Source of the DNA: a virus
Reading direction: 5' to 3' (one strand)
DNA length: 57,523 bases
Virus record (IMG/VR): IMGVR_UViG_3300032268_001051
Location: 1 to 57,523 of that record
Notes under the pieces: model-generated
What the model was told of the DNA's origin: nothing
What the model saw: only the letters and a program-made list of their open reading frames with translations
Databases searched by the model: none
Part shown: piece after piece, positions 15,348-57,056 of the stretch
How positions within the stretch are numbered: the first letter of the stretch is position 1
Layout: each line of letters begins with the position of its first letter
Translations under genes and position numbers: made by a program

Positions 15348-15377
15348 TTTTTAAATAATTAAAAGTGTTTAAATTGA

Positions 15378-15412: not shown

Positions 15413-15418
15413 ATAAAA

Positions 15419-15440: not shown

Positions 15441-15449
15441 CTAAATTTT

Positions 15450-16115: not shown

Positions 16116-16119
16116 TTTA

Positions 16120-16344
16120 TTATCCGTTTAATAATTGTTTTATACCGTGTGCGGTCTCAACTTTAACTTTTCTGTTGGTGTATACTTGATGTCCCGCTCT
16201 TTCTATCAATCCATCTTTTTCTCTAACAACATAACATTCGCCTGTGTCTAAATCACAAACTTCTTTTGTTCCGTTACCGTTGTCTTGTTCAGAAAATCTA
16301 ACTGATTTTCCAAGATAGTTGTCTAAGGCTGTTTTAATGTTCAT
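16120..16344 (-). CDS. Small unknown protein
   Basis: The 74-residue protein opens MNIKTALDNYLGKSVRFSEQ and is of mixed charge. It contains a DLDTGECYVVREKDGLIERA beta-like segment with two cysteines. No family is recognised. It is the first gene of a short two-gene unit with the coiled-coil gene (4-nt gap), driven by a TATATTTATAAT motif 14 nt upstream of its ATG and ended by the hairpin at 15419. Shared transcription suggests a shared function. Confidence 0.65.
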   Translation of the reverse strand: MNIKTALDNYLGKSVRFSEQDNGNGTKEVCDLDTGECYVVREKDGLIERAGHQVYTNRKVKVETAHGIKQLLNG

Positions 16345-16357
16345 AAAAAATATGTTT

Positions 16358-16371
16358 ATTATAAATATAAT
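16358..16371 (-). promoter_or_regulatory. TATTTATA promoter-like motif before the 74-residue gene
   Basis: CATTATATTTATAAT lies 14 nt upstream of the ATG at 16344 and just downstream of the giant gene ending at 16390. It belongs to the recurring motif set. Confidence 0.55.
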
Positions 16372-16389
16372 GAATTCGTTAAATTACGT

Positions 16390-23169: not shown

Positions 23170-23482
23170 AATAATAAAAATAATTTTCCAAAGCACCTTT
23201 GTAATCCTGTAATGAAGGAATCAAAGGAAATGGAATTACGAGTATAGCACCATCGTAGATATTATTTTCTAAACCCCCAAATTGTGGGTTGGCTTGTAAT
23301 ATTAACCAACTGAAATATGGAGAGCTGTAGAACTGTTGGGACACTTTATCCAATCTACTTTGCGCAATCTTATAAATGTATGTTTTATCGGTGGTCTTCT
23401 GTGGAATATTCACATAAGGCACAACGGTTTGTTCACCATTTATAAGAAACTCACTGTATCTATTATAGTAAGGAAATCCCAT
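23159..23482 (-). CDS. Baseplate wedge subunit, gp53-like with LysM-type fold
   Basis: The 107-residue protein has the pattern of short gp53/LysM-like wedge proteins. An N-terminal PYYNRYSEFLINGEQTVVPY beta segment is followed by YIYKIAQSRLDKVSQQFYSS, SWLILQANPQ and DGAILVIPFPLIP, the LysM-like helix-strand arrangement. T4 gp53 (196 residues) completes the wedge and joins wedges around the hub. It is shorter than T4 gp53 and lacks its distal part. Its ATG overlaps the upstream stop (TAATG) and its own end overlaps the next start, so three baseplate genes are translationally chained. Confidence 0.8.
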   Translation of the reverse strand: MGFPYYNRYSEFLINGEQTVVPYVNIPQKTTDKTYIYKIAQSRLDKVSQQFYSSPYFSWLILQANPQFGGLENNIYDGAILVIPFPLIPSLQDYKGALENYFYYYGR

Positions 23483-33796: not shown

Positions 33797-36700
33797 TTAA
33801 ATATTCTCAAACGAAGCTCCTGTTGGAGTGATGAAGAATTCGATGTCGATGAATTCTAACGCCTTCGTAGGTTTTAAGTAAATCTTACCTGTAAGTGTAT
33901 TTCTATCCAAATCCTCAGGAGTAGATGAAACTGTTACACGGAAATCGTATAAACCTCTATCTCTTCTGATTGAATCTAAGATTGGGTTAACACTGTCTAA
34001 GAATTGTTGTCTAACGATTTGGTCGTTTTGTTCGAACAATAATCTTACAGCCACCGCTGAAATCAACTTACGAGCTTGTAACAACAATCTTCTAACGTTT
34101 AATCTGTTAAGAGCGGTATCAGCAACTTGTAAAGTTTTGTTACCCCAAATTACAGTTCCTACATCAGAGAAAGTTGCGATTGGATTGATTCTACCTTGAT
34201 ATAAAGTATCTCTATCTTCTTGAGTTAGTTTAACTCTCGCTTTAACTGAATTTACAAGACCTCTTGTGTAACCCGCTGATGCGAACCAAGGGAATGCGAT
34301 GTTATCAGTTAATGCTAAGTTTCTACAAACTTCACCTGTTGCAGGTAGATAGATTTGTGTATTATTAACAGTGTCTCTTACAAGTATCCAAGGATAGTAA
34401 GTCGCTGTGTAGTTAGAATCGATTCCTGTGTTATCAAGAGCATCTACAGCTTCTTGTGGATAAACAATTAATTGAGGGTCAGTAGCATCTGGTGAGAACA
34501 TATCATAGTCAGGAGTCGTTGCGATATACACAGAATCCGCTCTTTGAAATTGAACCATGTCGATTGCTGATTCAACTAAGTTTGAGTTATCTATATAGTT
34601 AATTGATGCGGTTGCGAACACGTTAATATTTGTAGATTCAGGATTTGCAAAAGTTAAAATACCAAGTAAGTAAGCATAGTAGTCAGTGTTAGCAAAATCA
34701 CTTCTATTATTCTCAACCACTATTCTCTTAAAGATACCATCACCAGTTGCTGTTGGATATCTTTGGTCAGGTGCGAAACCTGCCATGAAACCTGAAGCAC
34801 CTAATTGGAATCTATCTTCGTTTGTTCTCCACTCTCTGTAGATATCCCAACCATCAAATCCACCAGCAAAACAACATGTGTATTTTCTAGCGTAAATAAA
34901 ATAATAAGGGTTTTCTTGAGAATCAGGGTCGTTTCTGAATTCAGCAACACCACACTCGAAAGCTGTTTGACCACTTGTGTCATATATGTTACCAATTGTC
35001 ACAACGGTTGCACCTGAGTCCATATGGAAACCTTTTGAAAGATAATTCCAAGGAATAGAGTCAGTTGCTTGTGCCCAATCACCAACAGGGTTTTGTTGAC
35101 CTTTGTATTGTAAGAACGAATCATCAATACCGTATTGTGTTGCAAAACCTAAATAAGTTCTTCTAACAACATCACCAGGAGATTCAACCGCGTTAGAGCC
35201 ACCTGAAGTAGTTCCAAACGGAGGATTATAAATTACTTCACCAGGGAAGTTATATTTTGTTTTGAATACAATGTAAGGTGAAGGATTAGAAGCTGAATCA
35301 TACTCTCTTTGTGTGTATCCATTGAATCCACAAGGAAGAGCATCGATAGGAGCACCGTCCGCCATTTCAACCATAATGTATCTTGAAACTAAAGCGTATT
35401 CACCATTTGAAGTTCCAATTCTAACACCGATAAAGTTGTTAGTTGCTGGGTCCATAGTGCAATTCGTGTATTTCTCAAGAACTACAGGATTTTGGTCTGT
35501 GTCAAAGAAATCTCTAACCAAAATATCAAATGTCATATTATTATATGAAAGGTTTGCAATTGAAACCTTAACTTCTGTATTTGCTGCATCACCATCAGAA
35601 ATAGATATAAATCTGAAAAGATTATAAACTCTATTACCTCTTAGTTCAGAAACAAAGTAAGGAGTCTTAGGTGACTGATATCTTTGTAATTTCCAAGCTA
35701 TTGTCGTTGTTGAGTTTGTAACTCTTGCTTCAGGTAAAGCAACTAATTCACAATTCAAACCTCTAATGTAACTTTGATTGAATGCGTAGTTTAAAGAACC
35801 TGGATAAATTTCTTCAATAAACAATGGAACTTCATTTCTCGATTTTCCAAAGTTATCAATACCAAACACTTTTGTAAGATATTTTGAAGAAGACGCTAAC
35901 AACGATGTCTCGAAAGAGAACGTGTCTGCATCTTTTGTAACACCAGAAACTAAGAAAGTTCCAAAAGGATTCTTAGTAACTCCTGAGTATTGGTCAGAAC
36001 AAACTAACTGAACATCAGTTAAACCTGTAACCTCATAAACAGGTCCGTGATTAGGACTTGAAGCACTATTAGTGAAAAGAGAAATACCTCTTGAACGTAA
36101 AGTTGCTACAACCATATTGTTATAGTCAAGGAAAGCAGTTCCAGAAAAAGTATAACTATTACCTGATACTGTTCCACTATAAACAGTGCTACCTAAAGAA
36201 ACTAAATTAGATACTACATAATCAAATGAATATCCTGAATAGTTGTTTCCACTAGGGATATCAAATGTTGCGTAGAACCAAGGGTCGTTATCCCCAGATG
36301 ATAAATCGTTATTATCTAAATTAGTTGAATCACTTCCAAACGCATTAACAATTGTTGTATAACCTGATAAATTCGCATAATCAGTTCCAGGAATTGAACC
36401 GTAAATAACTGCAGTTGTTGCAGATAAAGAAGGAGTATCAATTATATTACCAACGTATGTGTTAAAACCTTCAGCATATGTTGAAGTTGAACCGTTTGAT
36501 AATGTAAATTGAGTGTTTAAATCTAAAGCCACGGGTGCTGGTAATGCACCTCCAACGAATGTAATTGTATTTCCTGAAGTAGAACCCGTGAAAGACGCAC
36601 TCCAAGGAGCTGTTGCAATCGCCGAGTTGATACCGATAGTTGTCGGGTCAGGGTTAGCTGTTACTCTTATACTCCAAGATGGACCTGCGTCATAACCAGA

Positions 36701-37006
36701 TAAACCAAGAATTCTTGTAAAGAACATTTGGTTAGACTGTTGGAGATAAGATTTGGCAATATACGCCGCTTCATATTTAGGGATTTGTGTATTCACGAAC
36801 TTCTCTGGAACTGTTCCACCAAAGTAAGCTTGGAATTCATCATAGTTGGTAATAAATACAGGTTCAAATGCTGGTCCTTTGATGGATTCTCCAACAAGAC
36901 CGAGTGTAGTTACACCGACACTTTGAGCCACGAAAGATAAGTCAGTTTCAGATGTGTATACACCAGGTGAAACGAATACTTTTTGATTTGCTTGTGCTGT
37001 TGCCAT
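33797..37006 (-). CDS. Tail sheath protein, T4 gp18-like, oversized
   Basis: The 1069-residue protein has the sheath hallmarks at both ends. The N-terminus KVFVSPGVYTSETDLSFVAQ leads to VGVTTLGLVGESIKGPAFEP. The C-terminal core includes WGNKTLQVADTALNRLNVRR and the DIEFFITPTGASFE ending. The contracting core of gp18-type sheaths is normally about 400-660 residues, so about 400 extra residues lie between about 110 and 600, rich in Ser/Thr/Tyr/Asn beta segments, likely outward-facing domains. It drives tail contraction. A terminator follows, and the motif CTAATATTTATC lies about 35 nt upstream. Confidence 0.9.
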   Translation of the reverse strand: MATAQANQKVFVSPGVYTSETDLSFVAQSVGVTTLGLVGESIKGPAFEPVFITNYDEFQAYFGGTVPEKFVNTQIPKYEAAYIAKSYLQQSNQMFFTRILGLSGYDAGPSWSIRVTANPDPTTIGINSAIATAPWSASFTGSTSGNTITFVGGALPAPVALDLNTQFTLSNGSTSTYAEGFNTYVGNIIDTPSLSATTAVIYGSIPGTDYANLSGYTTIVNAFGSDSTNLDNNDLSSGDNDPWFYATFDIPSGNNYSGYSFDYVVSNLVSLGSTVYSGTVSGNSYTFSGTAFLDYNNMVVATLRSRGISLFTNSASSPNHGPVYEVTGLTDVQLVCSDQYSGVTKNPFGTFLVSGVTKDADTFSFETSLLASSSKYLTKVFGIDNFGKSRNEVPLFIEEIYPGSLNYAFNQSYIRGLNCELVALPEARVTNSTTTIAWKLQRYQSPKTPYFVSELRGNRVYNLFRFISISDGDAANTEVKVSIANLSYNNMTFDILVRDFFDTDQNPVVLEKYTNCTMDPATNNFIGVRIGTSNGEYALVSRYIMVEMADGAPIDALPCGFNGYTQREYDSASNPSPYIVFKTKYNFPGEVIYNPPFGTTSGGSNAVESPGDVVRRTYLGFATQYGIDDSFLQYKGQQNPVGDWAQATDSIPWNYLSKGFHMDSGATVVTIGNIYDTSGQTAFECGVAEFRNDPDSQENPYYFIYARKYTCCFAGGFDGWDIYREWRTNEDRFQLGASGFMAGFAPDQRYPTATGDGIFKRIVVENNRSDFANTDYYAYLLGILTFANPESTNINVFATASINYIDNSNLVESAIDMVQFQRADSVYIATTPDYDMFSPDATDPQLIVYPQEAVDALDNTGIDSNYTATYYPWILVRDTVNNTQIYLPATGEVCRNLALTDNIAFPWFASAGYTRGLVNSVKARVKLTQEDRDTLYQGRINPIATFSDVGTVIWGNKTLQVADTALNRLNVRRLLLQARKLISAVAVRLLFEQNDQIVRQQFLDSVNPILDSIRRDRGLYDFRVTVSSTPEDLDRNTLTGKIYLKPTKALEFIDIEFFITPTGASFENI

Positions 37007-39608: not shown

Positions 39609-39974
39609 ATGGAAATAAGACCATCTACAAAAATAATTTTAAAGAAAAGTCCAATTCACGGTTTGGGTGTTTTTTCAAGTCAAAAAATATCTAAAGGTGA
39701 ACCAATAGAAGAGTGCCCATTCTTAGCATTCCCACAAAACAAAAACGAACAAGTTCCCGCTTTTTCAAACTATACTTTTTGTTTCCCAAGAGGTGAAATG
39801 TGGACAACACATGCATTAGTTACGGGTTACGGTTCTTACTATAATCATTCTGAGAACGCCAATGTTGATTGGTATACAGAAAATGAATTAGGTCTTTTTG
39901 TTTTCAAAGCACTTAGAGACATTGAAAAAGATGAAGAACTTTTTATAAACTACGCAAATGGTGTCGTTTTTTGA
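39609..39974 (+). CDS. Minimal SET-domain lysine methyltransferase
   Basis: The 121-residue protein is a stand-alone SET domain. HGLGVFSSQKISKGEPI (residues 17-33) is the N-SET beta unit, GSYYNHSENANVDW contains the NHS cofactor motif (79-81), and FKALRDIEKDEELFINYA carries the ELFINYA catalytic-tyrosine motif (110-116). There are no pre-SET or post-SET zinc cysteines. Its size equals that of the chlorella-virus vSET enzyme (119 residues). It should transfer methyl groups from S-adenosylmethionine to protein lysine. The substrate is unknown; host or phage DNA-binding proteins are candidates. It is coupled to the SNF2 helicase by a TGATG overlap. Confidence 0.85.
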   Translation: MEIRPSTKIILKKSPIHGLGVFSSQKISKGEPIEECPFLAFPQNKNEQVPAFSNYTFCFPRGEMWTTHALVTGYGSYYNHSENANVDWYTENELGLFVFKALRDIEKDEELFINYANGVVF

Positions 39975-41778: not shown

Positions 41779-43317
41779 ATGAAAAAGATTGAAGAAGAAA
41801 TTCAACTGTTAGAAAAACAAATACAAGAAAACCACATACAAGAAGAAAAAAAACAGTTGATTAACGAAATGAAAAAAATTGGAATAGAAAAACTACCTTA
41901 TTCCTACTCAGCCCTCAAACAATTTATCGATGCAGAAACAATGGACTTCCATTATAACAAGCATTACAAAGGGTATGTAGATAAATTAAACACGGCCTTA
42001 TCAAAGAAAAAATACGGTGATTTAGAATTAGAACAAATCATTAAAACTATTAGCCGTTTTGATAAATCAGTTAGAAACAATGCGGGAGGAGCATTCAACC
42101 ACGCTTTGTTTTGGAACATGTTAACACCTAACCCAAAAAAGTTAACAGGCGAACTTTATAAAAAAATTAACAAAGAGTTTGGTTCATTCACAACTTTCAA
42201 AAAGAAATTTGAAACTGTTGCTAAAGATAGATTTGGTTCTGGTTGGGTTTGGTTAGTTCTCACTGCAAAAAACGGTTTGAAGATTATGTCCACACCGAAC
42301 CAAGACAATCCATTAATGAATGTTATTGAAGGCGGTGGATTTCCACTTTTAGGTTTGGACCTATGGGAACATGCTTATTATCTGAAGTATAGAAACAAAA
42401 GAGACGAATACATTTCAAATTTTTGGAAGGTTGTCAATTGGGATTTTATATCAAAGTTGTATGAGATGAAAACAGAAACAAAACTTTTGGAATCAGAAGG
42501 ATTTTCAAAAATTATTTCTGAATCGGAAGAGCCTAAATTTTGTTCTCCTAAAGAAGTTGCCTTCTACAATGAATTAATTAACAACAGAAAAATCAAAGAT
42601 GTTTATCAGACTGGTATAACACACATCTTGAAAAAAGTATTCAGTCAATTTTGGGTTGACGCCACTTCAAAAGAAATGTCAGGATTCTACGGAATTGAAA
42701 CAAAAGATGGTAGGTCAATGTTAAATAACCTTAACACAAACTTCAACTCATTTTGTCTTATTGTTAAATCTGTAAACAATCAAATAGAATCTTTAGGACA
42801 ATTAGATAAGATGTTTGATTTTTCAAACCCCGAAAATAGAAACCTTAATGAGGTAAAAAGATTCTTAAGAGCGTTAGATTATTTTAGAAACGATATTTTC
42901 ACTAAAACAAACAAAGATTTTATTAATATCATTAAAGTTCTAATGGTTCTTTGGAAAAGAGGGCAAAAAAGTGAATTAAGTGCAACAAAGAAAATGGAGT
43001 TGTATTTTGGTAAAGATGTTAAAATAATTCAAGTAGGTGGTCACGGACAGAAAAAAGATGCCTTTAAAGGAATTGACTTAATTGTTAATTTAGATGGTAA
43101 AGAATATACTGCACAGGTAAAACCATATTCTAAAATGTCTTTGATAAAAGATAAGGTAGAATTATTAGATACTGGTAATGTGAAGAAATATGATACTGAT
43201 TGGTTAATCTTTGTAAATCAAAAGACTAACAAGATACTTATATTCAAAAACAACCCACTGACCGATGAGAATCAATATTCATTCAATTTAGATTCTTTGA
43301 TACACGAAATAGAATAA
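41779..43317 (+). CDS. Fe/Mn superoxide dismutase fused to a PD-(D/E)XK nuclease-like domain
   Basis: The 512-residue protein has a complete iron/manganese superoxide dismutase domain at about residues 35-228. All four metal ligands are present: His58 (TMDFHYNKHY), His108 (GGAFNHALFW), Asp194 and His198 (LDLWEHAYYLKY). A charged coiled-coil-like N-terminus (1-35) precedes it. A linker with an IISESE site (245-250) leads to a helical region and a C-terminal domain in which FKGIDLIVNLDGKEYTAQVK (Asp433, Gln446-x-Lys448) matches the PD-(D/E)XK nuclease core. Dismutases are normally about 200 residues and free-standing. The role of the fusion is unknown. Confidence 0.82.
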   Translation: MKKIEEEIQLLEKQIQENHIQEEKKQLINEMKKIGIEKLPYSYSALKQFIDAETMDFHYNKHYKGYVDKLNTALSKKKYGDLELEQIIKTISRFDKSVRNNAGGAFNHALFWNMLTPNPKKLTGELYKKINKEFGSFTTFKKKFETVAKDRFGSGWVWLVLTAKNGLKIMSTPNQDNPLMNVIEGGGFPLLGLDLWEHAYYLKYRNKRDEYISNFWKVVNWDFISKLYEMKTETKLLESEGFSKIISESEEPKFCSPKEVAFYNELINNRKIKDVYQTGITHILKKVFSQFWVDATSKEMSGFYGIETKDGRSMLNNLNTNFNSFCLIVKSVNNQIESLGQLDKMFDFSNPENRNLNEVKRFLRALDYFRNDIFTKTNKDFINIIKVLMVLWKRGQKSELSATKKMELYFGKDVKIIQVGGHGQKKDAFKGIDLIVNLDGKEYTAQVKPYSKMSLIKDKVELLDTGNVKKYDTDWLIFVNQKTNKILIFKNNPLTDENQYSFNLDSLIHEIE

Positions 43318-47657: not shown

Positions 47658-48038
47658 TTAACAACAAGCTGTTTCAGAAATAAAGCTGTCTTGAACGTTG
47701 ATATAAAGTTCTTCTCTGATTGGTAAAATAAGACTACCTTCATCGTTTTTAATTAAGAATTGTCCTTGGTATCTACCAGGTGTGTTTGTATCTCTTGATG
47801 AGAATTTGAAATAAATGTAGTATTCGGTTGGAGCTCCGTCCTCGGCCATTATCAATGCAACAATCTCAGCAGGTGCAGATACAATCTTGGGGATACCAGT
47901 CTCAACATCAATCATCGAAAAGAAAATTGTTGAAACTTCTAAGTCTTCCATTAACTGCAGATAACCCGCTCTACCATCTTTTACAACCTGCATTTTTAAT
48001 ACAGGGAGTGTTGCGTTTTTCTTGATATAAAATTCCAT
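47658..48038 (-). CDS. Beta-rich structural-type protein with Cys-Cys C-terminus
   Basis: The 126-residue protein starts MEFYIKKNATLPVLKMQVVK. This ATG is preferred to one 18 codons upstream, because that one lies inside the neighbouring glycosyltransferase gene and the motif AATATATTTATT directly precedes the chosen start. The sequence (STIFFSMIDVETGIPKI; TNTPGRYQGQFLIKNDEGSL) has the look of an Ig-like baseplate-upper-protein domain found in tail fibre attachment proteins. It ends in ETACC. A fibre- or baseplate-linked role fits its place beside the glycosylation island. The family is recalled rather than proven. Confidence 0.65.
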   Translation of the reverse strand: MEFYIKKNATLPVLKMQVVKDGRAGYLQLMEDLEVSTIFFSMIDVETGIPKIVSAPAEIVALIMAEDGAPTEYYIYFKFSSRDTNTPGRYQGQFLIKNDEGSLILPIREELYINVQDSFISETACC

Positions 48039-48041
48039 AAC

Positions 48042-48053
48042 AATAAATATATT
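48042..48053 (-). promoter_or_regulatory. TATTTATA promoter-like motif after the glycosylation island
   Basis: AATATATTTATT overlaps the junction with the upstream glycosyltransferase gene end and lies 3 nt before the ATG at 48038. Confidence 0.5.
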
Positions 48054-48054
48054 G

Positions 48055-49722
48055 TTATGACTCTTTGCGTATACTTCTGTCGTAATGTTCAAATCTATCG
48101 TGTTCTGTTGGAGTCATTAACAATAAACCTGAATACAATTTTCCTTGTTTTGTTAACTGATACATATGACTCATCCATGTTTGTTCGTAAGGATGTGCCC
48201 ACGTTGTATCCAAAAACATTGTTTGATTTCCTGTTCTTGAAACCACTTGTGGCCAATTACAATAATAAACTTCACCCTTAGCATAAGGGATTCCTTTATG
48301 TGAATGAACCGATTTGAATAAAGTTCTTGGTGCATTTGGGTCTAATCCTACTTGAGGTAGTTTAGGTTTTTCTGGCCAATATTCAACTCTTAAATGTTGT
48401 GGAACATTATACCAAGACCATTGTGTTCCATTGTCACCAAAAAATTCTGAATAGTTTAGTTTTAAGAAATCAAAATTTTCCTTCTTAATAATTTCCAAAG
48501 TCTTAGAATATAAATTTGGAACAAATCTATTGAATCCATTTCTACAAACTCCGTCTTTCGGATGGAAAAACATATCGTCTTCAAAAAATAAATAATAATC
48601 TAAATCAGTTTGGTCAAAATGCTCAGCAATCCATTGTCTTCCACCACAAATACCTAAATTATCTTTTTTAATATGTTCGAAACCAAACTCATTACAAATT
48701 GCCAAATATTCTTCGGTAGTTGATGGGTCAGTTGAATTATCTAATAAAAACTTTTTAGTTTTTAAAATATAATCTTGGTCGTAAGATAACATTGAATCTA
48801 TTAAAGTCTTGAATTGTTTTGGACTATTGAATCCAATCACATACAATCCAACTTTATTTGTATCTAAATTTGATAATCCTCTTGTTGGATTTTCAGACTT
48901 AACAATTAGTGTTTCATTCTTAAGTTCTTCAAAAAATTTACTTATAAGTCCGTTACCCTCTATTTCAAAATAATTAATTAAATCTGAATGTTTATAACAC
49001 ATGATTGAAAAAATTGATTCTTCCGTCCCCATGTATCCCTCATTTAGAGTTGAACTTAATAATCCGTAGTATATTGAATTTATATCTGCAATTGTGTGTT
49101 TAGGTCCTCCAAAAAATCCACCTCTTGCAACTTTATTAACTTTGTCTCCAGCAATTTCATTTAAAACATGACAATTAAATCCATGAATTTCACTTGTCGC
49201 TTCATATGGAAAACAAACAAATGAAAATTTAGAAATGAATTTAGGTAACTTATCAAACACTTTATCATGTGTAAAATAACCTGGATGAACTGTGTTTGCA
49301 ATACCACCATCAATCCAAAACAAGTATTCTGAATTAAACTGGTCCATAATCTTAGCATCATGTAATAGGAATACCTTAGACATTACCAAAGGATTATAGT
49401 ATTCAAGTCTTGCTTGAGTTGAATCTTTTAACCACCCAACTTGATTTGACCATTCGTCACTATTCCTAATGTTTTGAATTTTGTCGAAAAATTCATTTTT
49501 AAACCAAGAAACGTCTCTAACAATAAATTGAGTATTCTCTGACGTTCTTTTTCTAAAAACAAGTTCCCTTAAACTTTCATCACCAAAAACAATCATGTTT
49601 TCCTCAACCTCCAATAATCTTTCGAATCTATCTAAATAATGTTGATAAGGTCTTGACCATCCTTCAGATAGTTCACCTCTACCAATATCCCATATACCTG
49701 TTACTAAAGTTACTCCGTTCAT
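48055..49722 (-). CDS. Two-domain glycosyltransferase (HtrL/YibB-like plus GT2-like)
   Basis: The 555-residue protein joins two enzymes. Residues about 1-280 match the HtrL/YibB/WlaTC type (VTLVTGIWDIGRGE, YNPLVMSKVFLLHDA, EYLFWIDGGIANTVHPG with the DGG nucleotide-sugar site). Residues about 288-555 form a GT-A-like domain (VGLYVIGFNSPKQFKTLIDS, DYYLFFEDDMFFH with the EDD metal site). Two transferases in one chain suggest two successive sugar additions. It is the last gene of the glycosylation island, 3 nt after a methyltransferase gene. Sugar and acceptor are unknown; the fibre protein at 55287 is a candidate acceptor. Confidence 0.78.
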   Translation of the reverse strand: MNGVTLVTGIWDIGRGELSEGWSRPYQHYLDRFERLLEVEENMIVFGDESLRELVFRKRTSENTQFIVRDVSWFKNEFFDKIQNIRNSDEWSNQVGWLKDSTQARLEYYNPLVMSKVFLLHDAKIMDQFNSEYLFWIDGGIANTVHPGYFTHDKVFDKLPKFISKFSFVCFPYEATSEIHGFNCHVLNEIAGDKVNKVARGGFFGGPKHTIADINSIYYGLLSSTLNEGYMGTEESIFSIMCYKHSDLINYFEIEGNGLISKFFEELKNETLIVKSENPTRGLSNLDTNKVGLYVIGFNSPKQFKTLIDSMLSYDQDYILKTKKFLLDNSTDPSTTEEYLAICNEFGFEHIKKDNLGICGGRQWIAEHFDQTDLDYYLFFEDDMFFHPKDGVCRNGFNRFVPNLYSKTLEIIKKENFDFLKLNYSEFFGDNGTQWSWYNVPQHLRVEYWPEKPKLPQVGLDPNAPRTLFKSVHSHKGIPYAKGEVYYCNWPQVVSRTGNQTMFLDTTWAHPYEQTWMSHMYQLTKQGKLYSGLLLMTPTEHDRFEHYDRSIRKES

Positions 49723-49725
49723 ATC

Positions 49726-50355
49726 TTATTTTTTAACTCTACAAGTCCAAGCAACGTTCTCAAACGTTTCTTTTTTGTAAATTTCTATATTATTTTTATC
49801 ACTGGCTTCTCTGATATCAGAATCTTGTATTTCATGCCAGTTCCAAACTTTACCGAAAATATTTGATTCAAATACTTCTTTGTTCTCAGCATAATCATGT
49901 GCTAAAATAAAATCTCCTGATTTCACATGTTCAGAAAGAATTTTAAATTCTCCAATCTTCCATCCTCCATCACACAACACAATAGTAATTCCATCCTGTT
50001 TAACAAAATCCACAACTTCTTGTTTTACCGTTAGAGCCGCAAAATCAAAAACGTCTTCGACTCTAACATCAATACCTGAAGTAATCATATCTTTATACCA
50101 AGGGCTTTCTGATATATCATATGATAATATTTTTGTTGATAACCCTAAGTCATCAATACTTAACTTCAAAAAATTTGTGAACCCACCTAAAGCAGTTCCA
50201 ATCTCCAAGATTTGATTTGGTTTTACCTCTTTTAAAAATTCGTAAAATACCTCGTAAGCACCGTGAAATTGTTGTGCAGTATTACCCATGAAACCAGACA
50301 AACTATCATTTTCTTTTAAATTTGTTAATCTAGTTATGTTTTCTTGTATATTCAT
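49726..50355 (-). CDS. Class I SAM-dependent methyltransferase (CmcI-like)
   Basis: The 209-residue protein has a Rossmann methyltransferase core. NQILEIGTALGGFTNFL (about residues 46-62) is the glycine-rich motif I, ILSYDISESPWYKD holds the acidic ribose-binding residue, and TIVLCDGGWKIGEF is the motif IV region. The long N-terminal helix and the HDYAE sequence recall CmcI/cephalosporin-hydroxylase-like methyltransferases, often found in glycan clusters where they O-methylate sugars. It is flanked by glycosyltransferases with 2-3 nt gaps. Sugar methylation is inferred. Confidence 0.75.
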   Translation of the reverse strand: MNIQENITRLTNLKENDSLSGFMGNTAQQFHGAYEVFYEFLKEVKPNQILEIGTALGGFTNFLKLSIDDLGLSTKILSYDISESPWYKDMITSGIDVRVEDVFDFAALTVKQEVVDFVKQDGITIVLCDGGWKIGEFKILSEHVKSGDFILAHDYAENKEVFESNIFGKVWNWHEIQDSDIREASDKNNIEIYKKETFENVAWTCRVKK

Positions 50356-50357
50356 AT

Positions 50358-51068
50358 TTAAAATCTTTTATAAAATTTAGCGTCTTTAGTAAAGAAACTA
50401 AAGCAATTGTTTAATATATTTTGCCACCCAAAATAACACCATTTAAGATTAGCCTTGACTGACGACATACCTATTTCAACCCCTTCAGCAAATGCCCAAA
50501 CGTTTGATTCAGTTGAATCGTTGGTTAATTTTTCCCAAAAAGAAGTGAATATTTTTAATTTTTCAGAATTCTTGAAAACTAAAAACTGTTCATTTACAAC
50601 ATGACCATTATCAAATTCATCAGTTTCTAATAATTTATAGAAATCTCTTTTATGTCTCCAAAAAGAATTATTTCCATCATGCTTTCCATCACCAATTGAA
50701 TGTGGTCTTTCAAACAACATATCATAATCGTTAGATTCCATAAAACTTATAACAGTATTTATTTTTTCAGTTGAGAACCCGTCTTCCAAGTTCCAATCAG
50801 AATCAACAAAGAAAACATATTCAAATCCTAACTCAGAAGCAACTTTGATTGGCAGATATTTTAAATTGTAATTGAAAAAATTATGAATAAATAATGTTTG
50901 GTTTTCAGGTAATTGAACAAATGTTGTGTTTTTAATCGTAGGAGAATTTACATTTGTTACAACAACGTAATGATGTTCATCTGAAACCTCATTTAATTTA
51001 TTTGCAAAATTTATCGCATTTTGTAAATATTCATCCCCTATTGCTATTGTGCAAAACGCATACCTCAC
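50358..51068 (-). CDS. Glycosyltransferase-like protein, GT-A type
   Basis: The 236-residue protein opens (V/M)RYAFCTIAIGDEYLQNAIN and has EYVFFVDSDWNLEDGF, a typical DxD nucleotide-sugar site. VVNEQFLVFKNSEKLKIFTS resembles the acceptor-side segment of small bacterial GT-A enzymes. The start is a GTG at 51068, overlapping the preceding TGA (GTGA); a nearby ATG is out of frame and soon stopped. The coupling to the GT10-like gene suggests stepwise action on the same glycan. The exact GT family is not assigned. Confidence 0.7.
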   Translation of the reverse strand: MRYAFCTIAIGDEYLQNAINFANKLNEVSDEHHYVVVTNVNSPTIKNTTFVQLPENQTLFIHNFFNYNLKYLPIKVASELGFEYVFFVDSDWNLEDGFSTEKINTVISFMESNDYDMLFERPHSIGDGKHDGNNSFWRHKRDFYKLLETDEFDNGHVVNEQFLVFKNSEKLKIFTSFWEKLTNDSTESNVWAFAEGVEIGMSSVKANLKWCYFGWQNILNNCFSFFTKDAKFYKRF

Positions 51069-52045
51069 GATTCAATAACCTTTTCTAAAAAGTTTAATGT
51101 GTAATCAAAACTCATATATTCAGGTAAGGAGTTGTTCACATACATAGGTTCTTCAATATAAGAACGATACAATTCAGTATCACTATCTATTCTTTTTACC
51201 AAATCTAAAAAGTCATCTATATTATCATACTCGTGTAAATTGATAAAACTTTTTGGGTTGAATCCTTCTTCAAGAATAAATTTATTACCATAAAAAATTG
51301 GAATAGCTCCGCTAAAATAAGCGTGAAAAATCTTTTCCTGTAAGATGTATGGTGTATCTGTAAAATGAATTGAAATATTAAATTTATTCTTTTCAAAAAA
51401 TCCAATCTTCTCACGATACCCTAAACCATCCATTCTTCCACTGTAAATGTGATTTATCCATTGATGTCTGTTTAAAGTATCATTTCCAAACAAATTTTGT
51501 TTCCATGGACCAGAAGAATTAACTTGTTTATATTCACAAAGTTTATCAAAAACTTTCTCTCTAAAATCGTTGTGAGATGCTTGTGTTATGGAACAAAACC
51601 CAACATTTCTTTTTGATATAATATCAAAGTTTCTTTTGTCTGTTAACCAATTTAATGGTGAATCAGTTAGTCTTGATTCATCAAATAAAGTCCAAACATC
51701 TAACATACCAGATGGTTGTCTTAGATATCTTTCGTGATTAAATTTTTGGTAACCAATTGACCAATGGTTATCTAAATGTAACATCGAACCAAAGTCAGCA
51801 ACTTCACCTGACACATATAAAAACTTTTTTGATTTATCGTTATGGTCGTGAACTTTTGGGTTTGCCTTTAAAAAAGTATCGATATTGTTTTCATTAAAAT
51901 TTAAATTACTGTAAATAACTAAGTCCGGATTCTCAGCATCAATTACTACATTATATTTTTTCGACAAAACAAAAATAAAGAAACGCATCCAACTATGCAT
52001 GCTTTCGTTTGGAAAGCCTTGCCTTGTAATTTTAATTGTTTTCAT
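51065..52045 (-). CDS. Fucosyltransferase-like glycosyltransferase, GT10 family
   Basis: The 326-residue protein shows the GT10 C-terminal signature: YREKIGFFEKNKFNISIHFT, YILQEKIFHAYFSGAIPIFY, then a Lys/Pro-containing SFINLHEYDNIDDFLDLVKR. GT10 enzymes move fucose from GDP-fucose in alpha-1,3/1,4 linkage. The N-terminal Rossmann half (residues about 1-150) is divergent, as usual. Its end overlaps the GTG start of the next gene, and its start overlaps the stop of the previous one by 14 nt, so it is tightly coupled. Whether fucose itself is the donor sugar cannot be read from the sequence. Confidence 0.78.
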   Translation of the reverse strand: MKTIKITRQGFPNESMHSWMRFFIFVLSKKYNVVIDAENPDLVIYSNLNFNENNIDTFLKANPKVHDHNDKSKKFLYVSGEVADFGSMLHLDNHWSIGYQKFNHERYLRQPSGMLDVWTLFDESRLTDSPLNWLTDKRNFDIISKRNVGFCSITQASHNDFREKVFDKLCEYKQVNSSGPWKQNLFGNDTLNRHQWINHIYSGRMDGLGYREKIGFFEKNKFNISIHFTDTPYILQEKIFHAYFSGAIPIFYGNKFILEEGFNPKSFINLHEYDNIDDFLDLVKRIDSDTELYRSYIEEPMYVNNSLPEYMSFDYTLNFLEKVIES

Positions 52046-52736
52046 TTAAAATGTGTGTTAGTTTAATTGTGTTTTCAGTATGAGGACCATTGTCATGTAT
52101 AATACAAGCATCTAACCCTATAAGTGAAACGTCTTTACCCTCAATCTTAACACTGTCTTTAGTATCTAAAGTGCTAAAAAAGAAATCACGCTCTTGGTCA
52201 ATTATAATACTGTCGTTCAATAAATACTGTATCGTCCATTTACCTTGGTCATCAATACCATTCTGATATTCTTTTTCGATAATCTCTTTAAGGTGATTAA
52301 CAATTTTATCAGTGTAACCAAAATAAGTCCCTGAATTTAGATATTTGCAATCATTAATTGCTCTTTTGTTTTCATACAAGTGAGTAAAGTTTGTTGGAGG
52401 CCATAAACCCTTTTCAGCACCCATTACAACATCACAATTAAGTTTTTGAAATTTTTCAATTAAGTTCTCAGGTGACTTAATAAAGTTTGTGTCTGTTGCA
52501 TCCAAAAACAAAATGTATTCGTAGTTTCCAATAATGTTCGACTCAATATATTCTAAAACTTTAACAGTCTTATAAAAATATAATTTATCATAGTAAGAAC
52601 CATTAGTTATTAATCCTGAGTTTCTTACAACATGAATGTCTTCAGGTGAAAAATACTTTAAAGCATTTTTATAAAATGATGGTTCATAATTTTCGGGGTA
52701 ATCAAATAGTGCGGTTATCAGTGCTATTTTTTTCAT
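52032..52736 (-). CDS. Glycosyltransferase resembling collagen/PLOD-type domain
   Basis: The 234-residue protein has YILFLDATDTNFIKSPENL, where DATD replaces the usual DxD metal site, preceded by YDKLYFYKTVKVLEYIESNI. It also has NCDVVMGAEKGLWPP, then KYLNSGTYFGYTDKIVNHLK and DDQGKWTIQYLL. This order (DATD, then AE, then LNSG, then DDQ) is that of the glycosyltransferase domains of procollagen lysyl-hydroxylases and their viral relatives, which glucosylate or galactosylate hydroxylated side chains. It overlaps both neighbours. The donor and acceptor are unknown. Confidence 0.75.
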   Translation of the reverse strand: MKKIALITALFDYPENYEPSFYKNALKYFSPEDIHVVRNSGLITNGSYYDKLYFYKTVKVLEYIESNIIGNYEYILFLDATDTNFIKSPENLIEKFQKLNCDVVMGAEKGLWPPTNFTHLYENKRAINDCKYLNSGTYFGYTDKIVNHLKEIIEKEYQNGIDDQGKWTIQYLLNDSIIIDQERDFFFSTLDTKDSVKIEGKDVSLIGLDACIIHDNGPHTENTIKLTHILNENN

Positions 52737-53343
52737 ATTTCTTATTTAAAAATAAAATATCTTGTTGGATTAATTCATGAGTTAAAGGGTGATTTATATT
52801 ACCAATAATTTCAACAGGATTAAATCCTAAGTCTCCCATATACTGATAAACAAATTCTTTAGTTGGTGCGTTTTGATTATATTCAACAAGAGAAACTTCC
52901 ATCAAAACGGCTTTAGCATTTTTAACTATCTCCAACCCTCCGTTTATTATATCAATTTCAGAACCTTGAACATCGATTTTAATTAAATCAAATGTTTTTT
53001 CACCCAAAAGGTTTGAAAGTGTTTTTGTTTGTTTTTTTTCAATTACGATTTGGTCATCATCGTAGAATGAAGTGTTTTCACGATATATTGAATTACCTGT
53101 GCATCTCGGTTCAGATTTTCTTACATAAAAATTAACTTCTTTTTCTGAATCACTTAACAAACAAATTGAATAATCAACCTTCAATGTTTGTAATGCTGGG
53201 TCACAATTTTCACTACCCTCAATCAAATAATAATATGAATTAGGAAATATGTTTTTAATTTCATTGTAGAATTGACCTACGTTAGCACCGATGTCCAATA
53301 TTGAATTTGGAACAAAATAATTTTCTATTTTTTTTAAACTCAT
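52702..53343 (-). CDS. FkbM-family methyltransferase
   Basis: The 213-residue protein is an FkbM-type S-adenosylmethionine methyltransferase: SILDIGANVGQFYNEIKNIF (motif I, about residues 15-34), then YYLIEGSENCDPAL, and FDLIKIDVQGSEIDIINGGL, the family's signature near residue 115. FkbM enzymes O-methylate sugars or polyketides and are common in surface-glycan clusters. The gene overlaps the next by 35 nt and ends in TGA. Together with the two other methyltransferases it suggests heavily methylated glycans. Confidence 0.82.
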   Translation of the reverse strand: MSLKKIENYFVPNSILDIGANVGQFYNEIKNIFPNSYYYLIEGSENCDPALQTLKVDYSICLLSDSEKEVNFYVRKSEPRCTGNSIYRENTSFYDDDQIVIEKKQTKTLSNLLGEKTFDLIKIDVQGSEIDIINGGLEIVKNAKAVLMEVSLVEYNQNAPTKEFVYQYMGDLGFNPVEIIGNINHPLTHELIQQDILFLNKKYEKNSTDNRTI

Positions 53344-53344
53344 G

Positions 53345-53941
53345 TTATACTGGTTTTTTAAACAATCCTGTTAATATACCACCTCCACCACATCTGTTGT
53401 CGTAGTAACATTCAATTGTTTCATAATTATTTTTTTCAAACAAATCCTTAAGAGATATTTCATCATAATAAGCAACATGTTGTTCTCCATTATCATACGC
53501 CTCTTTGTAGGGTATTGAAATTACAAAGTATCCACCGTCAATAAGATATGATTTTAACTTCTGTAATACCGCATCAACATCATCGGGATATATGTGCTCT
53601 AAAGTGTGGAAAGAAACTATTGAATCAAATTTTCCATCATATTCAAATTCCAAAATGTTTTTAACAACAAATTCTATTTTTGAGTCAGAATAAGAATTTA
53701 ATTTAGTTTCATATGCAACTTCAATTGCTTCAGGATTTAAATCCAAACCCAAAACATTAGATACATTAGGATTGTCTAAAATTAAAAAAGAACAAGAGCC
53801 GTGATTACATCCAAAATCTAAAACATTACCTAATAATTTATCTTCATAAAATTTTAAAATATTGTTATTTGGGTGGGTTCTCCACTCATCAGGATTTGGG
53901 TCTCTTGTTACATAATTCTCTTTTGAAGTATACCTATCCAT
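53345..53941 (-). CDS. Class I SAM-dependent methyltransferase
   Basis: The 198-residue protein has the small-molecule methyltransferase core: NVLDFGCNHGSCSFLIL (motif I), VLGLDLNPEAIEVAYETK (acidic residue binding the ribose), FDSIVSFHTLEHIYPDD (motif IV with HTLEH) and GGYFVISIPYKEAYDNGEQH. This is the Methyltransf_11/25 pattern common in sugar-modification clusters. Its start overlaps the GT60-like stop by 1 nt and the downstream FkbM gene begins 1 nt after it, so all three are coupled. The substrate is unknown. Confidence 0.8.
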   Translation of the reverse strand: MDRYTSKENYVTRDPNPDEWRTHPNNNILKFYEDKLLGNVLDFGCNHGSCSFLILDNPNVSNVLGLDLNPEAIEVAYETKLNSYSDSKIEFVVKNILEFEYDGKFDSIVSFHTLEHIYPDDVDAVLQKLKSYLIDGGYFVISIPYKEAYDNGEQHVAYYDEISLKDLFEKNNYETIECYYDNRCGGGGILTGLFKKPV

Positions 53942-55209
53942 TAACTTATGTGATTGTGAGTTAATTGACCTGTAATTCTATCACACCATCCTTTTGATTC
54001 TGAGTGAGGCCAAACTACCCAATATGAAGGTGATTCTGATGTTTGGAATTCTCTCCATACTTTACAATACTTATCAGGGTCATTCATCATTCTACTAATT
54101 TCCGCCTTATCAGCATCTTTTCTAAATAAAGTTTTATCTTCTTTGTTATGGAATGCAACTACCCAAAAATCGTAATCTGTTTCCGTAACTTGACTATAAC
54201 CAATATCAATACAATGTTTGAATACTACAGCAAAATCATTTTTCCAATCCTCTTCTGTTTCATAATTATATGGATTTGGTGCATAATTTTTATCTAGTGT
54301 GTATTGTTGAATTGCTCTTTTTTCAAATAAAATTCCCGCATACTTTTCATATTCTCTTAAAGTTCTTTCAGTTCCGAAACCATAAGGACCGTCATGTCCT
54401 TCTTGTTTTTCACCATCCATACCAAATAATTTTCTATTAGTTAAATGAGAAATTCTATTTCTTTCACCCCAACCTTTATCATCATCCCATTGTTTTGTTC
54501 TACCTTTACGAGTATATTCGTGATAAACAACAGGAACGTGAGGATGGAATAAATCATAACCCCATGTGTAAGCTCTTACAGCAATTGAGATTTCTTCTCC
54601 GTGAAAATAATATTCAGGATTGTGTTGAACTTCAGTTGAAAACTGTCCTAATGTAAAACAAAAGTGTGCTGAGTAGAATCTTGCAGTCACAGGTTTTTTA
54701 AGTTCTCTCCAACCTGGAATTGTTTCAGGTAAAAAGAACACAGCACCTTCAGGAATAAATCTATCGAATGCCATTCTCCAAGCATCTTGTGCTCTTCCCG
54801 CAGGGTCATTTTCAGGGTCAAAAGACGGAACATAACCCGTAAGTAGAGGCTTTTTGTAACCGTCTTTTTGTAGACCCTTCATCATTTTGATTAAGGTTTC
54901 ATCCCAATCTTTTTCGAATCTCATGTGAGAATCAATCTGCATTGTATATTCCTCACCATCATACAATTGTTGTGTTAGATTTCTTGCCCAACAAACACCT
55001 TTAGCTTCTTGGTAAGGAATGTCTAAGATTTTAAATCTTTTATCTTTTCTGAATTCATCAAGGTTATCAAACCCATCTGTTTCACTGAATTGTCTTGCAA
55101 TCGAGAAAACCAAGTTTTTCGGTTTCTTTGCATTTGCAATCATATCTTTTAAAGTTGGAACCAATTGAGGGTCTCTGTAACTTGCAATTTGTATAAAAAT
55201 TTTACTCAT
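53941..55209 (-). CDS. GT60-like GlcNAc transferase (Skp1-type)
   Basis: The 422-residue protein has the signature of the GlcNAc-transferase GT60 family, which adds GlcNAc to hydroxyproline of Skp1 or to Ser/Thr. IFIQIASYRDPQLVPTLKDM at the N-terminus, GVCWARNLTQQLYDGEEY and MQIDSHMRFEKDWDETL (the DxH metal site) are present, and VPVVYHEYTRKGRTKQWDDD comes late. It is the first gene of the island, immediately downstream of the Thr/Pro-rich fibre gene and separated from it by a terminator. A protein-linked sugar on that fibre is the natural hypothesis, because this family glycosylates protein directly. Confidence 0.85.
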   Translation of the reverse strand: MSKIFIQIASYRDPQLVPTLKDMIANAKKPKNLVFSIARQFSETDGFDNLDEFRKDKRFKILDIPYQEAKGVCWARNLTQQLYDGEEYTMQIDSHMRFEKDWDETLIKMMKGLQKDGYKKPLLTGYVPSFDPENDPAGRAQDAWRMAFDRFIPEGAVFFLPETIPGWRELKKPVTARFYSAHFCFTLGQFSTEVQHNPEYYFHGEEISIAVRAYTWGYDLFHPHVPVVYHEYTRKGRTKQWDDDKGWGERNRISHLTNRKLFGMDGEKQEGHDGPYGFGTERTLREYEKYAGILFEKRAIQQYTLDKNYAPNPYNYETEEDWKNDFAVVFKHCIDIGYSQVTETDYDFWVVAFHNKEDKTLFRKDADKAEISRMMNDPDKYCKVWREFQTSESPSYWVVWPHSESKGWCDRITGQLTHNHIS

Positions 55210-55235
55210 AAATTATATTTGGTATAAAAATAAAA

Positions 55236-55259
55236 AACCCTCTACAAAAGTAGAGGGTT
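55236..55259 (-). terminator. Terminator after the fibre gene
   Basis: A perfect 10-bp stem (AACCCTCTAC with GTAGAGGGTT, 4-nt loop) on the minus strand is followed by TTTTTATTTTTATACC. It lies between the fibre stop and the GT60-like start. Confidence 0.9.
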
Positions 55260-55286
55260 ATATATAATTTTAATTTTTTTATGTTA

Positions 55287-57056
55287 TTAACAACCGTTAG
55301 GGTCAACTGAGTTTACTACTCCTGCTCCTCCAGTTACAAGATACCAAGCAACTCCATTAGAATAATATCCATTAGGTGCTGTTACAGTAAGACCTGAATT
55401 AGAATACAATGTTTCACCAATGTTAGGACCTGGTCCACCAACAAGAGGTGCGTAAATAGCTATCGGTGAAATTGCGAAGTCAGAACAAGCTGTTGATGCT
55501 GACGATGCGTCGTAACCTAAACTATAAGTGTAATATCCAATTGTTTGAGTTGGAGTTGGTGTTAATGTTGGTGTAACTGTTGGTGTTACTGTTGCTGTTG
55601 GTGTAACTGTTGGTGTTGGTGTCGGACTAACACATCCTGTATATCCTCCTGTTTCCGAACCATTTGAAAGTAATTGAACAACTAGACCATTATATGAGTA
55701 GAAACCTGCTAAGTCAGTTGTTGTAGGACCTGAAGCAGAATCATAAAATATAGTGTTTTGGTCAAAGAGCGATTCATCACCCCAAATTGTTATAGAAGAA
55801 CCTCCATGACAAGCATCATATGCTGTTGCTCCAGATGTCGTTAAGAAACTGAATCTAGCATTTGTTGGAGTTGGAGTTGTTGTTGTTGTCGGAGTCACCG
55901 TTGGAGTTGTTGTTGTTGTCGGAGTAATTGTTGGAGTAACCGTTGCAGTCACAGTTGGTGTAGGTGTTTCAGTTGAAGTAGGTGTTTGGGTAGGTGTATC
56001 AGTAACTGTTGGAGTAACAGTGTTAGTTGGAGTCAAAGATATTGTCGGAGTATTTGTAGGGGTTTGTGTTGGTGTTTGAGATATTGTAGGTGTTGGTGTT
56101 ACAATACCGACACAACCATCAGGTTCTACGGCAGTTATTAATCCCGCTCCACCTGTTATTTGATATAATGCAGTTCCATTAGAATAAAATGCATTTGTTG
56201 CTGGAGTTGATAGAGAACTATCGAGATATAATGTTTCACCAATGTTTGGTCCAACGCCACCTGCTAATGTTCCGAATAATGTTTGTGGTGCTACGTTAAA
56301 GTTGTTACATGCATCATTTGTTGTTGTTCCAGTTCCTAATACATAAGTATAATATCCTATTGAAGGAGTTGGAGTTTGAGTTTGAGTTGGTGTGATTGTT
56401 GGAGTTACACTAACCGTTGGGGTCACCGTTGAAGTAACTGTTGGAGTTTGTGTGCTTGTTGGAGTTGGTGTTGGAGTATTACATATTGTAAAGAATCCAA
56501 CTGTTGTTCCTGTTGAATCAACTTGAACAACGTCCGTTCCATCACTATAGTAACCTGTCATATCAATTGATACAGGTCCCGAATCTGAATTATAGAATTG
56601 TGTGTTAGCATCAAATGCTGAGTCTTCACCCCAAATTGTTGTCGAGTTAATTCCTTGACAAGCAATTTCCGCAGTTGTTCCCGAAGTAACTGCGAAGATA
56701 TTTCTCGAGTTAGTCGGTGTTACGGTTATTGTTGGTGTAATAGTTGGAGTAACTGTTGCAGTAACACTTGGTGTTGGAGTTACCGTAGAAGTAACTGTAG
56801 GTGTTGGAGTTGCTGTTGGCGTAACAGATGGTGTAGGAGTGATTTGAAGTGGAGGGAAAACTCCGTCATTAATTAAAACAATTGATTGTTGAAATAATTG
56901 AGCGGAAGAATATGTTCCATTTACAAGCCAAATATTTTTTGTTTGACCTGGTAATAATTCTATTTGATATTGCCAAAGAGTGTCATCACATCTTTGATAA
57001 TTAAAATTTACTGTTGTTGAACCAGTATTCGTTAGTGTATATTTGCTACATGCCAT
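55287..57056 (-). CDS. Thr/Pro-repeat fibre-like protein with alternating Cys modules
   Basis: The 589-residue protein starts MACSKYTLTNTGSTTVNFNY (a small N-terminal domain to about residue 72). It then alternates long TPTPTVTPT-type linkers with globular modules. Module A appears at about 118-192 and 400-475 (shared TTIWGEDSAFD / ITIWGDESLFD and GYYS/GFYS strings). Module B appears at about 232-315 and 505-589 (shared ACxxF, GPNIGETLY, TGGAGxxxxVxPDGC strings). Each module has two cysteines, one near its start and one at its end, possibly a disulfide. There is no enzyme motif or signal peptide. It is probably a tail fibre or virion decoration; its Thr/Pro linkers resemble mucin-type O-glycosylation targets. 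Confidence 0.78.
   Translation of the reverse strand: MACSKYTLTNTGSTTVNFNYQRCDDTLWQYQIELLPGQTKNIWLVNGTYSSAQLFQQSIVLINDGVFPPLQITPTPSVTPTATPTPTVTSTVTPTPSVTATVTPTITPTITVTPTNSRNIFAVTSGTTAEIACQGINSTTIWGEDSAFDANTQFYNSDSGPVSIDMTGYYSDGTDVVQVDSTGTTVGFFTICNTPTPTPTSTQTPTVTSTVTPTVSVTPTITPTQTQTPTPSIGYYTYVLGTGTTTNDACNNFNVAPQTLFGTLAGGVGPNIGETLYLDSSLSTPATNAFYSNGTALYQITGGAGLITAVEPDGCVGIVTPTPTISQTPTQTPTNTPTISLTPTNTVTPTVTDTPTQTPTSTETPTPTVTATVTPTITPTTTTTPTVTPTTTTTPTPTNARFSFLTTSGATAYDACHGGSSITIWGDESLFDQNTIFYDSASGPTTTDLAGFYSYNGLVVQLLSNGSETGGYTGCVSPTPTPTVTPTATVTPTVTPTLTPTPTQTIGYYTYSLGYDASSASTACSDFAISPIAIYAPLVGGPGPNIGETLYSNSGLTVTAPNGYYSNGVAWYLVTGGAGVVNSVDPNGC
55871..55925 (-). repeat. Tandem 30-nt repeat in the Thr/Pro linker
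   Basis: A 25-nt string beginning TTGGAGTTGTTGTTGTTGTC occurs at 55871-55895 and identically at 55901-55925, a 30-nt period encoding (TPTTTTTPTV)-like units. Such exact repeats permit slippage or recombination that would change linker length. Confidence 0.85.

What the first reader, a model, noticed from the sequence alone, without database searches (positions are those of the whole stretch)
48055..57056. Glycosylation island beside a Thr/Pro-repeat fibre: candidate phage mucin-type decoration system
Eight overlapping or nearly touching genes encode at least five sugar transferase domains and three methyltransferases. They lie directly downstream of a fibre-like protein with long TPTPTVTPT linkers. 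Seen: the gene order, the motifs and the overlaps. Known: GT60 enzymes put GlcNAc directly on protein hydroxyproline/Ser/Thr, GT10 enzymes add fucose, and PLOD-like enzymes glycosylate hydroxylated side chains. Inferred: the phage builds a methylated glycan on its own Thr/Pro linkers, perhaps for adhesion, shielding or receptor mimicry.
Basis: partly seen in the sequence, partly recalled or inferred. Interest (0 to 1): 0.85.

Follow-up and report, generated by a model that had tools for sequence, protein, structure and literature searches.

The report
Phage mucin-type sugar-coating gene cluster
This aquatic phage carries an enzyme shaped like the ones that start mucin sugar-coating in animals, beside a protein with long threonine-proline linkers; the same pairing recurs in many phages and even beside a bacterial injection-needle protein, so the enzyme probably puts sugars on such repeats.

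Summary
Eight tightly packed minus-strand genes (48055-55209) follow a Thr/Pro-repeat protein (55287-57056). The first gene is a PF11397/GT60-type glycosyltransferase. Its predicted structure best matches mucin-initiating polypeptide GalNAc-transferases, and its DxH motif is conserved in phage relatives. The pairing recurs. Of 59 divergent viral GT60 loci with at least 5 kb on both sides, 49 have a Thr/Pro-repeat ORF within 10 kb and 31 within 300 b, upstream or downstream. Controls gave 0/80 and 5/120. In a cellular branch of the GT60 tree, Burkholderiales, GT60 lies 4-5 kb from a type VI VgrG with a Ser/Thr-Pro repeat tail in 13/13 cases; about 45 other VgrGs in the genomes searched lack one. 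Isolated phage XacN1, with a 49% identical enzyme, has reported virion glycoproteins and Thr/Pro-repeat genes; six related jumbo phages lack both. Most likely GT60 glycosylates Thr in these linkers and the variable cassette behind it extends and methylates the glycan. No activity is shown; donor, linkage and the linker protein's place in the virion are inferred. The hydroxyproline route is not supported. Ten of the 59 loci lack a nearby repeat protein, so the coupling is not universal.

The parts
55287..57056 (-). Thr/Pro-repeat protein, 589 aa; proposed acceptor. Four T-x-T-x linkers (56703-56843, 56358-56492, 55848-56102, 55536-55631) between small domains
   Evidence: phrog_15511 (unknown function) 3.7e-11
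55212..55262 (-). terminator-like hairpin (ATAACCCTCTAC TTTT GTAGAGGGTTTT, T-rich tail) between acceptor gene and GT60
   Evidence: found in 55 of 66 such gaps in the window clade, 2 of 28 in divergent loci
53941..55209 (-). GT60-like polypeptide glycosyltransferase, 422 aa; proposed initiating enzyme, DSH motif
   Evidence: PF11397 2.6e-66; phrog_24687 9e-168; model pLDDT 92; top 19 PDB matches are polypeptide GalNAc-transferases
53345..53941 (-). SAM-dependent methyltransferase (Methyltransf_23), variable cassette
   Evidence: 1.7e-18; in no other sampled locus
52702..53343 (-). FkbM-type methyltransferase, variable cassette
   Evidence: PF05050 6.1e-15; TIGR01444
52032..52736 (-). PLOD-type glycosyltransferase domain without hydroxylase, variable cassette
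   Evidence: PF25342 1.3e-17
51065..52045 (-). GT10 (fucosyltransferase-like) enzyme, variable cassette
   Evidence: PF00852 5.9e-8
50358..51068 (-). putative GT-A transferase with invariant DxD, variable cassette
   Evidence: alignment of 11 relatives; no family hit
49726..50355 (-). weakly recognised methyltransferase (CmcI / rhamnosyl O-methyltransferase-like), variable cassette
   Evidence: below curated cut-offs
48055..49722 (-). two-domain GT: YibB half plus second GT-A half; fixed part of the island
   Evidence: PF09612 1.3e-22; in all 80 loci clustered; fold like LH3, mimivirus R699, chondroitin polymerase
47658..48092 (-). small conserved gene of the frame; start uncertain (most relatives 125 aa)
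   Evidence: 69 loci; no family

Best explanation
The island is a phage-encoded, mucin-like protein O-glycosylation system. The GT60-type enzyme (53941-55209), made in the host cytoplasm, transfers a sugar (by family most likely alpha-GlcNAc from the host's UDP-GlcNAc) directly onto the Thr residues of the alternating T-P-T-V-T linkers of the neighbouring, probably virion-borne protein (55287-57056) and of similar repeat proteins elsewhere in the genome. The fixed YibB-GT protein and a swappable set of transferases and methyltransferases extend and methylate the first sugar, so that related phages carry different glycans on the same kind of stalk. Shown here: the genes, the fold and motif of the first enzyme, the recurrent pairing with S/T-P repeats in phages and with VgrG tails, and the fixed-frame, variable-cassette layout. 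Inferred: catalysis, donor, linkage, that the cassette acts on this glycan, and the biological benefit (stiffening and protease protection of stalks, plus variable surface chemistry).
For: Enzyme: PF11397 2.6e-66; DxH invariant in 30 aligned relatives; model pLDDT 92, top 19 PDB matches polypeptide GalNAc-transferases, E about 1e-10 to 1e-9. GT60 makes GlcNAc-alpha-Thr on T. cruzi mucins (PMC9472816), and GT27 and GT60 share DxH and Ser/Thr O-glycosylation (PMC7185993). Pairing: 49/59 divergent viral loci with a T/P-repeat ORF within 10 kb, 31 within 300 b, against 0/80 and 5/120 controls; at 75% clustering, 11/37 GT60 genes next to a repeat gene against 37/401 other genes in the same loci, p = 9e-4; 12/46 repeat-bearing viral records hold PF11397 against 0/50 random ones. 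The state changes at least 19 times on the enzyme tree. Isolates: XacN1 and RAS14 have GT60 and T/P repeats; six RaK2-group jumbo phages have neither. XacN1 virions hold at least two glycoproteins, and its authors suggested phage GTs, one being this homologue, ORF334 (PMC5852040). Bacteria: GT60-linked VgrGs carry S/T-P repeat tails, 13/13; other VgrGs do not. Cassette.
Against: No biochemistry. Of the 10 fully flanked divergent viral loci without a nearby repeat ORF, only 2 show a repeat elsewhere in the record (fragments). 34 of 46 repeat-bearing records lack PF11397 (many fragments). 34 of 50 fully flanked bacterial homologues have no Thr/Pro-repeat ORF in range. A terminator separates the two genes here. 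The acceptor's place in the virion rests on relatives. The cassette shares the operon, but nothing ties it to this glycan specifically.
Confidence: 0.7

Rival explanations
1. The cluster remodels the host's surface polysaccharide during infection (superinfection exclusion or receptor masking); the repeat protein is only a neighbouring fibre.
For: Jumbo-phage GT clusters have been read as capsule-modification systems (PMC7824862); YibB, GT25-like and GT10 genes also occur in LPS loci (family hits; the LPS link is general knowledge).
Against: The first enzyme's fold is that of polypeptide transferases, and it tracks S/T-P repeats in phages and VgrGs. No flippase, polymerase or NDP-sugar synthesis gene was recognised in the island.
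Confidence: 0.12
2. The linkers are unmodified flexible spacers; the adjacency is an inherited habit of tail-gene regions that collect accessory genes.
For: Many repeat-bearing viral records lack GT60; close relatives share the whole neighbourhood.
Against: The order differs between lineages (up, down, opposite strand); the state changes at least 19 times; the same coupling holds in VgrG loci with paralogue controls.
Confidence: 0.1
3. The enzymes glycosylate modified bases in phage DNA.
For: Weak phrog_842 (beta-glucosyl-HMC-alpha-glucosyltransferase) match of the YibB-GT protein, E = 7e-4; common role of phage GTs.
Against: PF11397, PLOD, GT10 and FkbM domains are not known as base-modifying families; no base-hypermodification gene was recognised among the proteins scanned.
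Confidence: 0.04
4. Skp1-like route: linker prolines are hydroxylated first and GT60 acts on hydroxyproline.
For: Founding GT60 enzymes act on hydroxyproline (general knowledge); a PLOD-type GT is present.
Against: No 2OG-Fe(II) hydroxylase domain was recognised in the island; linkers are selectively rich in Thr at every second position, a pattern that hydroxyproline does not explain.
Confidence: 0.04

Closest known systems
Trypanosoma cruzi TcOGNT1/2, GT60 polypeptide alpha-GlcNAc-transferases (PMC9472816)
   Same: same CAZy-type family, DxH motif, Thr-rich mucin-like acceptors, further sugars added to the core GlcNAc
   Different: Golgi enzyme of a protist; here a soluble phage enzyme paired with a phage protein, with methyltransferases in the cluster
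GT27 polypeptide GalNAc-transferases (animal and Toxoplasma mucin-type initiation)
   Same: best structural match, DxH, Ser/Thr in Pro-rich sequence as acceptor
   Different: 10-17% identity in the structural alignments; no sequence match in the PDB; lectin domain not tested
Xanthomonas phage XacN1 virion glycoproteins and ORF334 (PMC5852040)
   Same: homologous GT60 (49% over full length), T/P-repeat proteins, glycoproteins reported in virions
   Different: GT60 lies about 9 kb from its nearest repeat gene; different companions (GT9, carbamoyl transferase); glycosylated proteins not named in the text held
Mycobacteriophage capsid and tail-tube glycosylation (cited in PMC12619734)
   Same: phage-encoded GTs decorate virion proteins
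   Different: reported on C-termini of capsid and tail-tube subunits; no S/T-P-repeat linkers or GT60 mentioned in the text read
Moraphages, aquatic jumbo phages with four core GT families (PMC12619734)
   Same: aquatic large phages, several conserved GTs
   Different: no link to T/P-repeat proteins drawn there; membership of the window not tested

Membership tests
GT60 / PF11397 (GlcNAc) glycosyltransferases | profile match over the catalytic region above the curated cut-off | tested here: met
   224.9 bits against a cut-off of 21
GT60 / PF11397 (GlcNAc) glycosyltransferases | DxH in place of DxD | tested here: met
   DSH invariant in 30 aligned relatives; DAH in two more distant ones
GT60 / PF11397 (GlcNAc) glycosyltransferases | transfer of alpha-GlcNAc to a polypeptide | not testable with these tools
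   needs enzyme assay; acceptor inferred from gene pairing
Mucin-type O-glycosylation system (works like) | initiating enzyme with polypeptide-GalNAc-T-like fold | tested here: met
Mucin-type O-glycosylation system (works like) | Thr/Ser/Pro-rich tandem acceptor encoded with it | tested here: met
Mucin-type O-glycosylation system (works like) | glycan on the acceptor | not testable with these tools
   only indirect: glycoproteins reported for XacN1 virions
Phage virion protein | acceptor is part of the particle | tested here: inconclusive
   a relative's repeat protein ends in a virion structural domain, phrog_8510 1.8e-14; the window's own protein matches only phrog_15511, unknown function
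PLOD (lysyl hydroxylase-glycosyltransferase) | GT domain | tested here: met
PLOD (lysyl hydroxylase-glycosyltransferase) | 2OG-Fe(II) hydroxylase domain | tested here: not met
   234 aa protein holds the GT domain alone; no hydroxylase recognised in the island
LPS/capsule modification cluster | flippase, polymerase or NDP-sugar genes | tested here: not met
   none recognised among the island proteins

The most novel reading that the evidence does not exclude
GT60-type enzymes are a general bacterial and phage machinery that O-glycosylates Ser/Thr-Pro repeat tails on contractile-tail-like devices (phage stalk proteins, crAss-like muzzle proteins, type VI VgrG spikes), with swappable cassettes building methylated glycans: a prokaryotic counterpart of mucin-type glycosylation.
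Probability: 0.45. Interest if true: 0.9.

Novelty: new variant of a known kind. Interest (0 to 1): 0.77.

Why it matters
If right, it gives many glycosyltransferases in aquatic phages a target (the phage's own Thr/Pro stalks) in place of 'DNA or host surface' by default. It links an isolated phage with reported but unexplained virion glycoproteins (XacN1) to a candidate enzyme and candidate acceptors. It also predicts glycosylated VgrG tails in soil Burkholderiales, which I found described in no paper in the library searched. Each claim can be tested with a short peptide and one enzyme.

Tried and rejected
Sequence search of the PDB with the GT60 profile and with the YibB-GT protein found nothing; only fold comparison did. 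tblastn of the repeat protein in phage records found nothing, as low-complexity filtering would cause. NCBIfam gave no match for GT60 or the repeat protein. Papers: nothing found that links GT60 to phage Thr/Pro repeats or to VgrG. The idea that the two genes form one operon here was dropped after the terminator was seen. BcepSauron gives the repeat pattern only as a perfect (ACGCCC)n microsatellite. Two very divergent PF11397 hits (L444, L445) sit in loci without repeats and were not pursued.

Full report
What is there. The window is a 57,523 b IMG/VR virus record with contractile-tail and replication genes: sheath, tube, baseplate, DnaB-like helicase, family B polymerase, ribonucleotide reductase. 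On the minus strand, a 589 aa Thr/Pro-repeat protein (55287-57056) is followed by eight genes down to 48055 with spacings from 35 b overlap to 3 b gap. Family scans give PF11397/GT60, Methyltransf_23, FkbM, PLOD-type GT, GT10, an unrecognised gene with an invariant DxD, a weak methyltransferase and a YibB protein. The YibB protein is a two-domain GT-A enzyme in its model (pLDDT 80), with best PDB matches LH3, mimivirus R699 and chondroitin polymerase (low overall TM-scores, as expected when domain orientation differs).

The acceptor candidate. Four linkers total 209 aa: 95 Thr, 44 Pro, 20 Val, 13 Ser. Thr is followed by Thr at +2 in 87% of cases and at +1 in 8%. Outside the linkers Thr and Ser are more nearly balanced (48 to 36). 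Pooled over all loci: 17,679 Thr, 3,202 Ser, 10,178 Pro in 44,630 linker residues. The linkers use mixed codons and are more GC-rich than the genome, so neither slippage nor base composition explains them.

The enzyme. The GT60 model is confident (pLDDT 92). Foldseek ranks human, Toxoplasma and other polypeptide GalNAc-transferases in the top 19 places. DxH is conserved, as in GT27 and GT60 (PMC7185993). GT60 enzymes of T. cruzi put alpha-GlcNAc on Thr of mucins (PMC9472816). The protein begins with the catalytic domain, so cytoplasmic action is likely (inference).

Co-occurrence. A scan with the enzyme found 431 relatives; in the 80 closest, nearly every locus with enough upstream DNA has a T/P-repeat ORF on the same strand, mostly 37-88 b upstream. 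Because close relatives share neighbourhoods by descent, a divergent set was taken. Of its 59 loci with at least 5 kb on both sides, 31 have a repeat ORF within 300 b and 49 within 10 kb, upstream, downstream or on the other strand. Controls: 0 of 80 loci around the sheath gene of the same phage group, 5 of 120 random viral loci; control loci are shorter on average. After 75% single-linkage clustering, 23/37 clusters have a repeat ORF within 10 kb and 11/37 are adjacent, against 37/401 other genes in the same loci (p = 9e-4). Viral records picked by a TPTPTPTPT codon pattern hold PF11397 in 12/46 cases, records picked by an arbitrary pattern in 0/50 (Fisher 6e-5; not length-matched). Proximity changes state at least 19 times on the enzyme tree.

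Isolated phages. XacN1 and RAS14 carry the enzyme (49% and 44% identity) and have 20 and 6 repeat-pattern matches. RaK2, SCTP-2, Atu_ph07, slurp01, GAP32 and 121Q have neither enzyme nor repeats; BcepSauron has only a perfect microsatellite. For XacN1 the authors report at least two glycoproteins in virions and suggest phage GTs ORF328 and ORF334 as makers; ORF334 is the GT60 (PMC5852040). XacN1's repeat protein ORF325, beside a baseplate wedge gene, lies about 9 kb from ORF334.

Bacteria. Among 80 cellular homologues, a Burkholderiales branch at the far side of the tree has GT60 near a VgrG. Its C-terminal tails are TPTPTP, PTEPPPTEPP, PSEEPP, TPDE or PSTPE repeats and the like in 11/11 loci; other VgrG copies of the same genomes lack Pro-rich S/T repeats (two carry Pro-free STSMTG repeats). 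In 61 genomes of one genus, 4 have GT60, and exactly those 4 have this VgrG type with tails; the sampled VgrGs of the others lack them. One tail (L633) is poorer in Pro (EPAASDE). Two Sphingomonas MAGs have GT60 directly behind a Pro/Thr-rich protein, and two MAG contigs next to a crAss-muzzle-like protein with T/P repeats look viral (the muzzle domain was scanned in one of the two, L556). Most other bacterial homologues have no Thr/Pro-repeat ORF in range.

Layout. Across the close loci the frame is fixed: repeat protein, GT60, cassette, YibB-GT, 125 aa gene, DNA polymerase. The usual cassette is a GT25-like gene plus a 294 aa unknown; about a quarter of the loci, the window among them, carry other transferases and methyltransferases there. 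This is what one expects if an initiating and a conserved enzyme stay while the outer glycan is exchanged (inference). In this clade a hairpin terminator separates repeat gene and GT60; in divergent loci it is usually absent.

Judgement. The pairing of enzyme and S/T-P repeat is well supported; that the enzyme glycosylates it is the simplest reading but unproven. Roles of the cassette and benefits to the phage are inference. The acceptor's presence in the particle is supported only through relatives. The hydroxyproline variant is unlikely. Counter-evidence: a sixth of fully flanked divergent loci lack a nearby repeat gene, and only 2 of those 10 show a repeat elsewhere in the record, so some GT60s may serve other acceptors.

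Noticed in passing
window 41779-43317: Phage gene with a complete Fe/Mn superoxide dismutase (Sod_Fe_N 9.2e-23, Sod_Fe_C 6.7e-40) fused to a roughly 280 aa C-terminal part; a similar-sized ORF (about 510 aa) sits at the same place near the polymerase in relatives.
   Followed up: partly
window 39609-39974: Small phage gene with a SET domain (PF00856 1.4e-14), a lysine-methyltransferase fold.
   Followed up: no
L568-L595 (Burkholderiales), e.g. L581:9971-11374 and 15075-17564: GT60 homologue 4-5 kb from a VgrG with a Ser/Thr-Pro repeat C-terminal tail; other VgrGs lack the tail.
   Followed up: yes
L553:8947-9735, L572:8466-10007, L588:13252-13722: Bacterial T/P-rich proteins near GT60 homologues carry twin-arginine-like N-termini (RRLALREL, RRTFVRRL, RRKFLKLL), which would fit export after cytoplasmic glycosylation.
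   Followed up: no
window 33797-37006: Tail sheath of 1,069 aa; the sheath family's best stretch is the C-terminal fifth.
   Followed up: no
window 23482-28461: 1,659 aa protein with a weak, sub-threshold OmpA-like match at 854-905.
   Followed up: no
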